Assembly: GCA_016839655.1 (NCBI GenBank)
Contig: JAEOTW010000327.1
Coordinates: 1-26,050, forward strand
Origin: Promethearchaeota archaeon
GTDB lineage: Archaea; Asgardarchaeota; Lokiarchaeia; Sigynarchaeales; SOKP01
Direction: 5' to 3'
Length of the DNA: 26,050 nucleotides
Part shown: positions 1,058 through 21,478 of the stretch, piece by piece
Layout: every line of letters begins with the position of its first letter
Numbering within the stretch: position 1 is the stretch's first letter
Notes under the pieces: generated by a model
Seen by the model: only the letters and a program-made list of their open reading frames with translations
Databases searched by the model: none
What the model was told of the DNA's origin: nothing
Program-made: the position numbers and the translations under genes

Positions 1058-1732
1058 TTATAATCCTATAAATTTTTTAATCTCATCCTCAGTATAACTT
1101 AAAGTATCGGTAGCATCTATTTTTTTCAACTTTCCTCTTTTTTTATAATATTTGATAAGAGGTTTGGCATTTATTTCATAGGCATCTAATCTACTTTTCA
1201 AAGTTTCTTCATTATCATCACTTCTTTGCTCAAATTTGATCTCAGCACCACATTTGTCGCATACTCCTTCAACTTTTGGTGGGAGAGTATATTTATTATA
1301 GATTTCTCCGCAGGATTTACAACCATATCTACCTAATATTCTCTTAAATATTATATCTCTGGAAATCTGTAATAATAGGAGCAAATCTACTTCAGTTATA
1401 TCCGATAATGCTTCAGCTTGGGGTAAAGTTCGAGGAAATCCATCGAGAATGAACCCATTTTTCTTAACATCTTCTTTATTTAATCTATCACTTACCATTT
1501 CAATAGTAACATCATCAGGTACTAGTTCTCCCTTATCCATGTAGCTTTTTGCTTTTAATCCTAAAGGTGTCTCATTTTTCAAATTTTCTCGAAATATATC
1601 TCCAGTACTTATATGAACGATTTTAGGTGCTACTTTTTTTATCTGCCCGGAAAATGTGCCTTTTCTAGATGATTTGAGTAATTCAAATCATTTTCCAGCT
1701 CCGGGTGGTCCAAACAATATTAATTTTTTCAT
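1058..1732 (-). CDS. adk: Adenylate kinase (long, zinc-LID form) interrupted by a 30-nt putative mRNA intron
   Basis: Catalyses ATP + AMP to 2 ADP. The frame from ATG 1732 reads MKKLILFGPPGAGK and then meets an in-frame TGA at 1690-1688. After 30 nt the frame continues with GTFSGQIKKVAPK and runs to the stop at 1058. Deleting 1663-1692 restores the P-loop GPPGAGKGT (residues 8-16) and gives 214 residues, the standard length of long-form adenylate kinases. Other landmarks downstream are STGDIFRE, the AMP-site DGFPRT and a zinc-binding LID with CKSC...CDKC. The downstream part alone (from 1582) would lack the whole ATP site and is not a credible start. All other conserved positions look intact, so this does not look like a decaying gene. 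In many archaea adk lies beside secY; here it has moved away. Confidence 0.88.
1663..1692 (-). other. Putative bulge-helix-bulge (BHB) intron in adk mRNA
   Basis: A 30-nt insertion within codon Lys14 of the P-loop. Reading the minus strand: central-helix strand CTGG, bulge AAA (1694-1692), inner helix ATGATTTGA (1691-1683), loop ATTAC, inner helix TCAAATCAT (1677-1669), central-helix strand CTAG (1668-1665), bulge AAA (1664-1662). CTGG/CTAG pair over 4 bp with one G-U. Cutting after the second base of each bulge, as archaeal splicing endonuclease does, joins A1693 to A1662 and rebuilds GGA AAA GGC (Gly-Lys-Gly). The outer exon-exon helix is weak near the motif, so this is a relaxed BHB. The GAAAA repeat at both edges means the cut site is ambiguous from the sequence alone. 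Seen: the insertion, hairpin and fit. Inferred: splicing. Confidence 0.78.
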
Positions 1733-5483: not shown

Positions 5484-5978
5484 ATGAGTGAAAAAGGTAA
5501 AGTAGTAGTTAAAGCATTGGTTACAGGAGGGAGTGCAAGTGGGGGACCTCCAATTGGTCCCGCCGTAGGTCCAACGGGTATAAACATTAAAGACGTAGTA
5601 GACGAGATCAACAAGCAAACAATGGTATTTAAGGGATTAACTGTTCCGGTAAGAATCGAGTGTGACCCAGAAACAAAGCAGTTTAAAATTTTCATTGAAA
5701 CACCGTCTACAGCATCATTATTACTTAAAGAGGTTGGTACTGAAAAAGGTACTTCTGCTACTGCAGAAAAAAAAATTGGTAATCTAACACTTGAGCAAAT
5801 TCAGAATGTAGTTGATGGTAAAAGAGAGAAATTTCTGGATAAGACGTATAAGGCGGCTGTAAAAACAGTGCTGGGAACAGCATTATCAGTAGGATTAACA
5901 GTAGAAGGAGAAGATCCTAGAATCATTCAAAAACGACTTGATAATGGAGAATATGATGATAAAATAAGAGGTGAATAA
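5484..5978 (+). CDS. rpl11: 50S ribosomal protein L11 (uL11)
   Basis: 164 residues, standard archaeal length. The N-terminal domain has the flexible proline-rich loop GGSASGGPPIGPAVGPTGINIKDVVDEIN that contacts factor G-type GTPases, followed by FKGLTVPVRIE. The C-terminal domain, with LTLEQIQNVV and TVLGTALSVGLTVEG, binds the GTPase-associated centre of 23S rRNA. First gene of rpl11-rpl1-rpl10-rpl12, the usual archaeal order. Its end carries GAGGTGA, the Shine-Dalgarno for rpl1. Confidence 0.97.
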   Translation: MSEKGKVVVKALVTGGSASGGPPIGPAVGPTGINIKDVVDEINKQTMVFKGLTVPVRIECDPETKQFKIFIETPSTASLLLKEVGTEKGTSATAEKKIGNLTLEQIQNVVDGKREKFLDKTYKAAVKTVLGTALSVGLTVEGEDPRIIQKRLDNGEYDDKIRGE

Positions 5979-10506: not shown

Positions 10507-10521
10507 CGCAACGGGAGGGAT

Positions 10522-10551
10522 TTATTCTTATAAGAAGCAATTTCTTATATT
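10522..10551 (-). other. T-loop intron of tRNA-Ser (30 nt, between A58 and A59)
   Basis: Central helix GTTC/GAAT (4 bp, one G-U), bulges AAA (10553-10551) and AAA (10523-10521), inner hairpin TATAAGAA / TTCTTATA with loop ATTGC and one A-A mismatch next to the bulge. Cutting after the second base of each bulge leaves loop TTCAAAT exactly. Length, bulges, hairpin size and loop sequence nearly match the adk insertion. Confidence 0.85.
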
Positions 10552-10582
10552 TTGAACCCCCGAGTGCATTCACACACCGGCT

Positions 10583-10599
10583 TTCTGGGATAACTTCCA
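10583..10599 (-). other. Anticodon-loop intron of tRNA-Ser (17 nt, canonical 37/38)
   Basis: Exon TTGG (positions 32-35) pairs with intron CCAG to form a 4-bp central helix. The bulges are AGT and AAA, cut after the second base. The product loop is TTGGAGA. This is the standard archaeal intron position; the remaining inner hairpin is very short. Confidence 0.8.
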
Positions 10600-10615
10600 C
10601 TCCAAGCCGGCGCCG

Positions 10616-10648
10616 TTCCGAGCTAGGTGCGTCTATGCACACTAAACT
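10616..10648 (-). other. D-loop intron of tRNA-Ser (33 nt)
   Basis: Central helix CCGG/TCGG with one G-U, bulges TAA and AAC. Cutting after the second base leaves D loop TAGCCCGGTAC with A21. The inner part has short helices (TAG/CTA, then TGTG/CGCA across a bulged C). Position and length are set by the need for a normal class II D arm. Confidence 0.75.
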
Positions 10649-10716
10649 TACCGGGCTAGGCAACCGTTGCAAATAAAAATAAATAAAAAAGATTGTTTGG
10701 GAATTTTACTTAGAAG

Positions 10717-19996: not shown

Positions 19997-21364
19997 TTAT
20001 GATTGAACTACTTGATTATAAGCTTTTTCAAATCTCTCTACAGCAGAATTGATATCCTTTTCAGTTGCTCCAATTGCAGCATTCATTACGATATAAGGAG
20101 TTGGATAATTACTACAACATGTCCCAAATACTTTATCTTTTGGATTATATACTCTTGGTCCTGTTACTCTTAAATTATATAACGCTCCACCAAGAGCATA
20201 TAGATCTTCTTCTTTTATATTATCTAATGATAATGCCACTGCAACAGGATTATAAACATCAAGAATTCTTTCATTTATCATATCCGCAATTTCTCTGAGT
20301 TTCGTTTCAAGCATTATGCGGTTTTTCTGTTGCTCTTCAATTAGTTTTTGATAACCAGAAATACCCATTGATAGGATTGAAATTAAAAAATTCACGACTG
20401 GAGTAGCGGAGGCACGTCCAGCATATGCTTGGCTAATTTTTATTATATTTTCTTCTACGGGTGAGGCAATTACTGCTCCACCCACAGGGGTTAGGAAATT
20501 TTTATCTGTAGATTGAATAATAGCGTCTATCCTTCCTGCATCAATTGCAGATCTAATTATTTTCATCCATTCTGGACTTTGAACTCCATATGCGTTTATA
20601 ACAATATGTACAAGGTCATTTTCTTTTGCAAATTTACTTATTTCCTTAATATCATCATGTTCTCGAGGTGGAAAGAAGCTAGTAACTGAGATGATAGCAA
20701 AACAGTCATCTTCAAAACTCTCTTTAATATCTTCAATTGGGATCCTAACAGCATCCCCAAAAATTTTTCCTGGAACAATTTTTGCCTTAAAACCCATTAA
20801 TTCAATTGACTTTAAAAGAGATTTGTGATCTATTTGAGGAACTAAAACAGTTCGTTTATAATTCGAATTGGATCCACTCTGCCAAGTATTTAGAGCTCCT
20901 AAAGTTAGAGATAATGACATTCCTGTACATATAGGTACTACTATCGCATCTTTTATGTTTGGTAAACCATTTTGTCTCAATATATTTCGAGCCAAATAAT
21001 TTGATAATTCGTACATTATTGAACCTCCTGGTGCTTTTGGTTGAGCAGCTGTTAAAAAACCACTTCTTCCAACACCATGACAAAATCCAGCTGATGTCTT
21101 TAAGTGTAGTTTTGATGCTATTCTTGCTTCTCTTTCACCTACTCTAGCAGCATTATCATCTTTATCTGTATCCATATTTGATAGAGCTAGGAGTAGGAAC
21201 TCAATTTGCTCATCAGTCCAAGGTTCCTTAGGGACAGATTTTTGTTCAAAAAGTATTTTAATTGGTTTTAAAAACTCATTTAAAACAAGTTGACCTCTAT
21301 TTAACATATTTTCTGGTATATTCTTATTATCAAAAAAATCGATAATTTTGCTAAAATCAACCAT
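19997..21364 (-). CDS. spcS: O-phosphoseryl-tRNA(Sec):selenocysteinyl-tRNA synthase (SepSecS)
   Basis: 455 residues, PLP enzyme that converts O-phosphoseryl-tRNA(Sec) to selenocysteinyl-tRNA(Sec) with selenophosphate, as in archaea and eukaryotes. Landmarks are AARVGEREARIASKLH, then FCHGVGRSGFLTAAQPKAPGG, which recognises phosphoserine and PLP phosphate. The PLP lysine is in IIQSTDKNFLTPVGGAV (K288). The C-terminal tail includes GTCCSNYPTPY. I use ATG 21364 rather than the GTG three codons upstream. The 3' end of tRNA-Sec lies 21 bases upstream on the same strand with no terminator between, so tRNA and enzyme are likely one transcript. Confidence 0.96.
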   Translation of the reverse strand: MVDFSKIIDFFDNKNIPENMLNRGQLVLNEFLKPIKILFEQKSVPKEPWTDEQIEFLLLALSNMDTDKDDNAARVGEREARIASKLHLKTSAGFCHGVGRSGFLTAAQPKAPGGSIMYELSNYLARNILRQNGLPNIKDAIVVPICTGMSLSLTLGALNTWQSGSNSNYKRTVLVPQIDHKSLLKSIELMGFKAKIVPGKIFGDAVRIPIEDIKESFEDDCFAIISVTSFFPPREHDDIKEISKFAKENDLVHIVINAYGVQSPEWMKIIRSAIDAGRIDAIIQSTDKNFLTPVGGAVIASPVEENIIKISQAYAGRASATPVVNFLISILSMGISGYQKLIEEQQKNRIMLETKLREIADMINERILDVYNPVAVALSLDNIKEEDLYALGGALYNLRVTGPRVYNPKDKVFGTCCSNYPTPYIVMNAAIGATEKDINSAVERFEKAYNQVVQS

Positions 21365-21385
21365 AAAAAACACTATAATTATTTT

Positions 21386-21478
21386 TGGCGGCCCTCGAGG
21401 GGAATCGAACCCCTATCCCTCCGCAGGATAACTGGGTTTGAAGCCCAGCGTCAGAGACCACTCCAACCGCCAAGGGCC
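21386..21478 (-). tRNA. tRNA-Sec (anticodon UCA), CCA encoded
   Basis: 93 nt including CCA. Acceptor stem of 9 bp (GGCCCTTGG/TCGAGGGCC, two G-U) and T stem of 4 bp (GGGG/CCCC) around TTCGATT, the 9/4 fold of archaeal and eukaryal tRNA-Sec. D stem of 7 bp GTTGGAG/CTCTGAC (two G-U) with a 4-nt loop TGGT, the archaeal form. Anticodon stem CTGGG/CCCAG with loop CTTCAAA (TCA). Long variable arm TATCC/GGATA. Discriminator G73, followed by CCA. It carries no intron, unlike the other two tRNAs here. A TATA-like stretch lies near 21507-21520. Confidence 0.97.

What the first reader, a model, noticed from the sequence alone, without database searches (positions are those of the whole stretch)
1663..1692. 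Candidate BHB intron inside the P-loop of the adenylate kinase mRNA
Seen: after GPPGAGK an in-frame TGA and 30 nt interrupt adk, then GTFSGQ continues in the same frame. The 30 nt form a perfect 9-bp hairpin (ATGATTTGA/TCAAATCAT, loop ATTAC), flanked by a 4-bp helix CTGG/CTAG and two 3-nt AAA bulges. Cutting after the second base of each bulge restores GGA AAA GGC and a 214-residue Adk. Known: archaeal splicing endonuclease cuts BHB motifs; very few protein genes (for example cbf5 in Crenarchaeota) are known to carry such introns. Inference: an essential housekeeping mRNA of this archaeon must be spliced like a tRNA. I know of no described case in adk.
Basis: partly seen in the sequence, partly recalled or inferred. 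Interest (0 to 1): 0.95.

Follow-up and report, generated by a model that had tools for sequence, protein, structure and literature searches.

The report
tRNA-style introns in Loki housekeeping mRNAs
In a Lokiarchaeon, one of the archaea closest to eukaryotes, a 30-base hairpin interrupts the catalytic loop of the essential adenylate kinase gene and is likely cut out of the messenger RNA by the tRNA-splicing machinery; inserts of the same build interrupt a ribosomal protein gene in 27 of 53 relatives examined, so mRNA splicing of this kind is probably more common in these archaea than the single confirmed case (cbf5) suggested.

Summary
On the minus strand, adk is broken after GPPGAGK by 30 nt (1692-1663) with an in-frame TGA, a 9-bp hairpin and bulge-helix-bulge (BHB) geometry; removal restores GPPGAGKGT and a 214-aa Adk. 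None of 50 related adk genes spanning the site is interrupted, so the insert is lineage-specific. The decisive evidence came from synteny: uL11, intact in the window, carries 36 inserts of 28-37 nt at four sites in 27 of 53 related genomes (up to three per gene). All 36 break the frame or carry a stop; removal restores the conserved uL11 N-terminus; 32 of 36 have the full central helix, with compensatory changes. A third gene (alpha/beta hydrolase) has one in 8 genomes. The window's tRNA-Ser(GGA) gene carries three BHB introns. Relatives encode two EndA-type proteins (one lacking the catalytic histidine) and RtcB. Ribosomal bypassing, Sec read-through and artefact explain the set poorly. No RNA was available, so splicing is inferred. 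BHB mRNA introns are a known kind (cbf5); several per gene, in Asgard housekeeping genes, repeatedly gained or lost, was not found in the literature I could search.

The parts
1693..1732 (-). adk exon 1 (MKKLILFGPPGAG plus the first two bases, AA, of the K codon)
   Evidence: translation; sequence
1663..1692 (-). predicted 30-nt BHB intron in the P-loop (GK|GT), with in-frame TGA
   Evidence: no interruption in 50 of 50 related adk genes spanning the site (35 loci read at the P-loop); BHB geometry
1058..1662 (-). adk exon 2 (last base of the K codon, then GTFSGQ... to stop)
1695..1698 (-). central helix, 5' strand CTGG (in exon 1)
1692..1694 (-). 5' bulge AAA, predicted cut between 1693 and 1692
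1683..1691 (-). inner helix, 5' strand ATGATTTGA
1669..1677 (-). inner helix, 3' strand TCAAATCAT
1665..1668 (-). central helix, 3' strand CTAG (in intron)
1662..1664 (-). 3' bulge AAA, predicted cut between 1663 and 1662
10508..10670 (-). tRNA-Ser(GGA) gene with three BHB introns (10648-10616, 33 nt, D-loop; 10599-10583, 17 nt, anticodon loop; 10551-10522, 30 nt, T-loop); evidence that this organism's own RNAs need BHB splicing
   Evidence: not called by ARAGORN as it stands; called tRNA-Ser(gga) after removal of the three. The 33-nt intron is absent from 6 of 6 relatives' copies read, the T-loop intron from 1 of 6
5484..5978 (+). uL11 gene, intact here; the corresponding gene of 27 of 53 relatives carries 1-3 BHB mini-introns

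Best explanation
The 30 nt at 1692-1663 are most likely a bulge-helix-bulge intron of the adk pre-mRNA, predicted to be cut out at both bulges by the archaeal tRNA-splicing endonuclease (a probable EndA alpha/beta pair), after which RtcB would join the exons into an uninterrupted adk message. Shown: the insert, its geometry, its absence from relatives, the same geometry with compensatory changes in uL11 and in a hydrolase of relatives and in a tRNA of the window, and two EndA-type genes and RtcB in relatives. Inferred: that the RNA is actually cleaved and ligated, that these enzymes do it, and that the window's organism has them. It would be one of a set of 28-37-nt introns that sit in conserved, mostly glycine-rich stretches, appear patchily among relatives, and whose removal restores essential proteins.
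For: (1) Exact restoration: removal gives GPPGAGKGT, as in related adk genes. (2) Geometry: with the register free only where the protein stays identical, 33 of 37 protein-gene inserts have 4/4 central pairs at the canonical offset; on a 7x7 grid of offsets the next values are 24 and 16 (same helix shifted), then 14, 12, 10 and 8 or less. Shuffling each insert and choosing registers again gives mean 2.3, maximum 7 in 300 runs. (3) Covariation: TGGG/CCCA vs AGGG/CCCT at uL11 site 17; at site 34, 93.5% of cells pair against 27-48% for slid controls and 5 of 12 pairs change on both sides. (4) All 36 uL11 introns break the frame or carry a stop; 28 of 36 are not multiples of 3. (5) They occur in MAGs of several projects (titles; loci tied to genomes). 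(6) EndA (PF01974): 53 of 65 related genomes have at least two genes, 64 of 65 at least one. In the six genomes read, one protein keeps Y, H and K where I recall the catalytic triad of M. jannaschii EndA, the other lacks the H; both of G001 match the catalytic and N-terminal Pfam domains. RtcB in 9 of 9. (7) The window's tRNA-Ser(GGA) carries three BHB introns; removing the D-loop and T-loop ones gives the very sequence of intron-less copies in relatives.
Against: No RNA evidence. No relative shares the adk insert, so its own structure cannot be tested by covariation, and an error in this one assembly cannot be excluded for adk alone. The outer helix is missing at most sites. Four of 37 (all at uL11 site 24, 4 of its 7 carriers) pair only 3/4. 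Of five single-sequence folds, one is no better than shuffles (site 17, z 0.04), one is weak (site 34, z -1.76), and in two (site 28, hydrolase) the minimum-energy fold does not form the proposed central helix. At site 34 the central helix varies on one side only or not at all, and one of five covariation measures (further pair types) does not exceed the shuffles. Registers for the hydrolase and tRNA introns were chosen by me with the motif in mind. The window's own genome is not held. In the survey only adk (window), uL11 and one hydrolase stood out, so such introns are rare.
Confidence: 0.93

Rival explanations
1. Programmed ribosomal bypassing: the ribosome leaves at AAA before the TGA, skips the hairpin and lands on the second AAA, as in T4 gene 60 or mitochondrial byp elements (recalled).
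For: At adk the layout fits: AAA followed by a stop, a hairpin in the gap, and a matching AAA 30 nt on, within a GAAAA/GAAAA direct repeat.
Against: Eight uL11 introns at site 17 have no repeat at their ends (ambiguity 0) and split the Ser codon 2+1, which a hop between matched codons cannot rebuild. At site 34 of G001 the codons before the gap and before the landing point differ (AAC, TAC). Bypassing does not predict the central helix, the 3-nt bulges or two-sided changes, nor the same build in a tRNA.
Confidence: 0.03
2. Assembly or sequencing artefact, or a dead adk copy in this contig.
For: No relative shares the insert; a single contig; the host genome is not available for a second copy.
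Against: Among window genes with a relative in the survey, no other was flagged as interrupted. A shuffled 30-nt insert reached this geometry in 1 of 300,000 tries. Apart from the insert the frame is open and the protein is 95% identical to an intact Adk. The same build recurs in other assemblies.
Confidence: 0.03
3. UGA recoding: Sec or read-through with a 10-residue insertion in the P-loop.
For: The window encodes tRNA-Sec (21386-21478) and, next to it, SepSecS (PF05889).
Against: The product would carry 10 residues between GK and GT of the P-loop, unlike the relatives read. The uL11 inserts carry TAA and TAG stops and mostly frame-breaking lengths.
Confidence: 0.01

Closest known systems
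cbf5 pre-mRNA intron of Crenarchaeota (PMC2738675; abstract and passages read)
   Same: BHB-like intron in a protein gene, in the codon of a catalytic residue, cut between bulge bases 2 and 3 by EndA, mostly unconventional BHB linked to hetero-oligomeric EndA, lineage-specific gain and loss.
   Different: One gene, one site, another phylum. Here: three genes, four sites in one gene, up to three introns per gene, 28-37 nt, in Asgard archaea. In the 64 of 65 related genomes with a TruB_N/cbf5 match no stop lies inside the match.
Archaeal tRNA introns, including those of Asgard Atabeyarchaeia and Freyarchaeia (PMC11291895; passages read)
   Same: BHB introns; several per gene; non-canonical positions, as in the window's tRNA-Ser.
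   Different: Those are in tRNA genes; the passages read say nothing of protein genes.
HVO_1309 5'-UTR BHB sites of Haloferax (PMC7714728; passages read)
   Same: EndA acts on an mRNA.
   Different: They lie in a 5' UTR, not in the reading frame. The paper states that only one additional BHB intron, that of cbf5 mRNA, had been reported.
T4 gene 60 / mitochondrial byp bypassing elements (recalled, no call)
   Same: Short hairpin-bearing gap after a stop codon, matched flanking codons at adk.
   Different: No split codons, no BHB geometry; see rivals.

Membership tests
Archaeal BHB intron | 4-bp central helix with a 3-nt bulge on each strand, exon-1 strand 5' and intron strand 3' | tested here: met
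   adk CTGG/CTAG, bulges AAA/AAA; 33 of 37 protein-gene inserts 4/4, the other four 3/4; shuffled inserts mean 2.3, max 7 of 37
Archaeal BHB intron | cut after the second base of each bulge restores the mature sequence | tested here: met
   adk, 36 of 36 uL11 inserts (32 of them with 4/4 pairs) and 8 of 8 hydrolase inserts give the conserved protein; tRNA-Ser is called by ARAGORN after removal
Archaeal BHB intron | outer helix adjoining the second bulge (strict hBHBh') | tested here: not met
   outer helix 0 at adk and most sites, up to 7 bp at uL11 site 28. Relaxed forms are accepted members (cbf5, PMC2738675; BHL, PMC12397907; passages read), so this lowers 'strict BHB', not 'BHB intron'
Archaeal BHB intron | EndA present, of a type that accepts relaxed motifs | tested here: inconclusive
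   two EndA-type genes in 53 of 65 relatives; in six genomes read the second lacks the H of the recalled triad. Assembly as (alpha-beta)2 and substrate range untested; PMC12397907 notes that one (alpha-beta)2 enzyme has limited activity on BHL forms; host genome not held
Archaeal BHB intron | spliced RNA observed | not testable with these tools
   no RNA data held
Programmed ribosomal bypassing | matched take-off and landing codons | tested here: not met
   met at adk; not met at eight uL11 site-17 introns, which split a codon with no end repeat
Group I / group II / other known RNA families | match to an Rfam model | tested here: not met
   only tRNA-Sec in the window at gathering threshold; relatives' inserts were not run against Rfam

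The most novel reading that the evidence does not exclude
Lokiarchaea carry a living population of 28-37-nt BHB introns that move into, and are lost from, fixed conserved codons of housekeeping mRNAs, probably by an RNA-mediated route such as reverse splicing; their mRNAs are multi-exon and depend on the tRNA-splicing machinery, giving the archaeal relatives of eukaryotes a working, spliceosome-free mRNA splicing system.
Probability: 0.4. Interest if true: 0.97.

Novelty: new variant of a known kind. Interest (0 to 1): 0.93.

Why it matters
A 2020 paper (PMC7714728, passages read) knew of one BHB intron in an archaeal mRNA coding region, that of cbf5. Finding the same build in adk, uL11 (four sites, up to three per gene) and a hydrolase of Asgard archaea means that gene prediction can fail at essential genes in the archaea closest to eukaryotes: two public uL11 entries start inside predicted introns (P0203, P0207). 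It raises the question of how cells that may couple transcription and translation handle introns within the first ~45 codons. And it makes testable, with ordinary RNA-seq, whether mRNA splicing by EndA and RtcB is a working system in Asgard archaea and how such introns spread.

Tried and rejected
Sequence relatives of the adk insert: a 3-mismatch pattern search over 65 genomes matched one genome (G026), a palindrome hit on both strands inside a glycosyltransferase-like gene (name by eye) where it is read in frame; the gene's stop lies elsewhere. Taken as chance.

Other intron-bearing genes: besides adk, uL11 and the hydrolase the surveys flagged rows in L016 and L018 (fumarylacetoacetate-hydrolase-like gene, name by eye), L019, L034, L115, L123 and L219, each from one or two queries; I dropped them as tandem, antisense or weak cases without further analysis. 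An L120 row was dropped because its query ORF runs through tRNA-Sec. A window row at 10616 led to the tRNA-Ser gene. uL2 (PF00181): 25 of 65 genomes match, no stops inside, but 40 have no match, so it says little. cbf5 (PF01509): 64 of 65 match, no stops inside.

uL11 outside the family: 210 of 227 Asgard genomes match; the list of matches was cut. Among listed rows outside the family none is split and only G112 has a stop (one TGA). Nine genomes were looked at again, eight of them not on the list plus G112; three partial matches run to a contig end and the two pieces of G096 lie on different contigs.

Alignment A2 (site 17) misaligned four 5' ends and was not used. Exon identities are shaky for rows whose alignment stopped early (G002, G004, G008, G022, G023, G046). 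The reshuffling (17 of 20 classes fully paired, shuffled mean 2.3, maximum 9) did not re-choose registers and is too lenient; one search replaces it. The output was cut, so the statement that no other window gene was flagged as interrupted rests.

Full report
WHAT IS THERE. The window is a Lokiarchaeal contig: its adk neighbourhood is collinear with MAGs titled Candidatus Lokiarchaeota or Lokiarchaeia. adk runs on the minus strand from 1732 to 1058. After GPPGAGK comes an in-frame TGA, and the frame resumes as KGTFSGQ. The insert with its flanks reads CTGG AA|A ATGATTTGA ATTAC TCAAATCAT CTAG AA|A AGGC. Removing 1692-1663 gives GGA AAA GGC and a 214-aa protein that matches Pfam ADK and is 95% identical over its whole length to P0001. 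Among 300,000 shuffles of the 30 nt placed at the same site, one reached 4/4 central pairs with an inner helix of at least 8 bp.

IS IT SHARED? In the 65 genomes of the family of G005 (L005, isolate ABR05), 51 have an adk match, one per genome, none with a stop inside; 50 of the 51 matches cover the site (G036 covers only residues 152-212) and none is long enough to hold the insert. The P-loop was read in 35 Lokiarchaeal loci: GKGTF, uninterrupted, in all 35. So the insert is a recent gain, or an error confined to this contig. Looking at the neighbouring genes gave the answer.

THE DECISIVE OBSERVATION. Comparing the window with the corresponding regions of seven relatives showed that the uL11 gene of most of them is broken in its N-terminus, although it is intact in the window. 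In the family, 58 of 65 genomes have a uL11 match. I aligned 53 of the 58 (left out: G045 at a contig edge, G009, G011, and partial G037 and G050) with a protein-to-DNA aligner that allows introns. Of 53, 26 are uninterrupted and 27 carry inserts: 19 one, 7 two, 1 three; 36 in all, 28-37 nt long, 28 of 36 not multiples of three, 36 of 36 breaking the frame or carrying a stop. They fall at four sites: GGS^A (12), GGPPI^GP (7), GPAV^GPT (2) and GPTGI^N^IKD (15). Removal restores the conserved GGSASGGPPIGPAVGPTGINIKDVVD (G021 lacks its N-terminus at a contig end). Gene callers are misled: the uL11 listed for a 460,779-base contig begins MSSNGKGPSVGP, which looks like site-24 intron sequence run into exon, and P0207 begins MPSASGGPP, likewise at site 17. 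460,779 is also the longest contig of P0001, the closest intact Adk, so the two are probably from one genome.

STRUCTURE. At the canonical offsets (two exon bases between central helix and 5' cut, two intron bases between central helix and 3' cut) 33 of 37 inserts (adk + 36; 32 of the 36) have four of four central pairs, with the register free only where the protein stays identical. On the 7x7 grid of offsets the next values are 24 and 16 on the same diagonal, then 14, 12 and 10, and the rest 8 or less. Shuffling each insert and choosing registers afresh gives mean 2.3 and maximum 7 of 37 in 300 runs. The four exceptions are all at site 24 and have three of four. The central helix changes on both sides at site 17 (TGGG/CCCA, AGGG/CCCT) and differs between sites (GCAT/ATGC, GCCT/AGGT, GGCT/AGCC, CTGG/CTAG). 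At site 34 (15 sequences, 14 distinct) 93.5% of cells pair, slid controls 27-48%; 5 of 12 pairs change on both sides, all in the inner helix; four of five measures exceed all 500 shuffles, the fifth (further pair types) does not. Single-sequence folding is mixed: z -4.03 (adk), -1.76 (site 34), 0.04 (site 17), -4.60 (site 28) and -2.15 (hydrolase); in the last two the minimum-energy fold does not show the proposed central helix.

OTHER GENES. In 1.73 Mb of Lokiarchaeal DNA searched with 2,121 ORFs, holding 247 ORF clusters present in two or more genomes (antisense ORFs are included, so fewer genes), one further gene stood out: an alpha/beta-hydrolase gene (Abhydrolase_1) in the stretch fetched around uL2, with a 33-nt insert in CHPHPQ^YGGNMYNN in 8 genomes (G039, G042, G048, G053, G054, G056, G057, G058) and without it in G040; TCCT CA|A ... 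GGGA AA|A, 4/4 in 8 of 8, register chosen by me. Such introns are therefore few, and uL11 is a hot spot. All known here lie within about the first 45 codons; I have no test of why.

MACHINERY. PF01974 (EndA) is found in 64 of 65 family genomes, at least two genes in 53. In the six genomes read, the ~198-aa protein keeps Y, H and K at what I recall as the catalytic triad of M. jannaschii EndA, and the ~205-aa one lacks the H, as expected of a catalytic and a structural subunit. RtcB is present in 9 of 9 genomes searched. In the window itself, 10670-10508 (minus) is a tRNA-Ser(GGA) gene with three BHB introns (33, 17, 30 nt) that ARAGORN calls only after their removal. Six relatives' copies could be read: none has the 33-nt D-loop intron, one (G001) also lacks the T-loop intron, and their uninterrupted stretches equal the window's joined exons. 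So this lineage also gains BHB introns in tRNA.

MECHANISM. Inferred: the adk transcript folds into the BHB; EndA cuts between bulge bases 2 and 3 on both sides; RtcB joins the exons; ribosomes that load before splicing would stop at the TGA at codon 15. Bypassing fits adk but not uL11, where eight site-17 introns split a Ser codon with no repeat at the ends. Sec read-through would leave ten residues in the P-loop and cannot explain TAA, TAG and frame-breaking lengths.

EVOLUTION. On a tree of 54 rows (uL11 C-terminal part, plus Adk for 27; only 11 of 51 inner branches starred) the fewest changes are 9 for 12 site-17 carriers, 6 for 7 at site 24, 2 for 2 at site 28 and 13 for 15 at site 34. 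A few introns are more alike than the exons around them: G042/G059 1.00 vs 0.86, G003/G005 0.96 vs 0.86; but overall this holds for only 15 of 66 pairs at site 17, 14 of 21 at site 24 and 35 of 105 at site 34. Repeated gain at fixed codons, loss, or transfer of short tracts is suggested, not shown. In the rest of the phylum no split uL11 was seen in the listed rows; the list was cut.

LITERATURE. Ten searches of a PubMed Central subset without preprints or most subscription papers listed no paper on BHB introns in Asgard protein genes; most listings showed only the top of the papers found. I read passages of seven papers, and the abstract and outline of one of them. PMC7714728 states that only one additional BHB intron, in cbf5 mRNA, had been reported; PMC2738675 describes cbf5, its mostly unconventional motif and the link to hetero-oligomeric EndA, and mentions predicted, unconfirmed introns in other genes; PMC11291895 reports introns in 92-95% of tRNA genes of three Asgard genomes.

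VERDICT. A real and surprising feature: a predicted BHB intron in the adk P-loop, one of a set of mRNA mini-introns in Lokiarchaea. Splicing itself awaits RNA.

Noticed in passing
window 10670-10508 (-): tRNA-Ser(GGA) with three BHB introns (D-loop, anticodon loop, T-loop), not called by ARAGORN in the unspliced form; the 33-nt D-loop intron is absent from six relatives' copies, the T-loop intron from one of them (G001).
   Followed up: yes
uL11 loci L115, L117, L119, L125, L127-L176: 36 mini-introns at four sites in 27 of 53 Lokiarchaeal uL11 genes; G003 carries three.
   Followed up: yes
L208, L210, L211, L212, L214, L217, L220, L222: 33-nt BHB insert in an alpha/beta-hydrolase gene (CHPHPQ^YGGNMYNN) in 8 genomes; G040 (L218) lacks it.
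   Followed up: partly
P0203, P0207: Public uL11 proteins whose listed starts lie inside the predicted introns.
   Followed up: partly
window 21386-21478 (-) and 19997-21373 (-): tRNA-Sec next to SepSecS (PF05889): the organism likely makes selenoproteins.
   Followed up: no
adk, uL11, hydrolase introns: All lie within about the first 45 codons and mostly in glycine-rich conserved motifs; the reason for the 5' bias is unknown.
   Followed up: no
L277 (G112:C293): uL11 of an Asgard genome outside the family with one in-frame TGA and no extra length: error, recoding or something else.
   Followed up: no
L113 (G026), near 1405: A glycosyltransferase-like gene (name by eye) split by a single TAA without insert; its coding sequence happens to hold a palindrome like the adk hairpin.
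   Followed up: partly
G042/G059 and G003/G005 uL11 introns: Introns more alike than their flanking exons (1.00 vs 0.86; 0.96 vs 0.86), as if introns or short tracts had moved between lineages; most pairs do not show this.
   Followed up: partly
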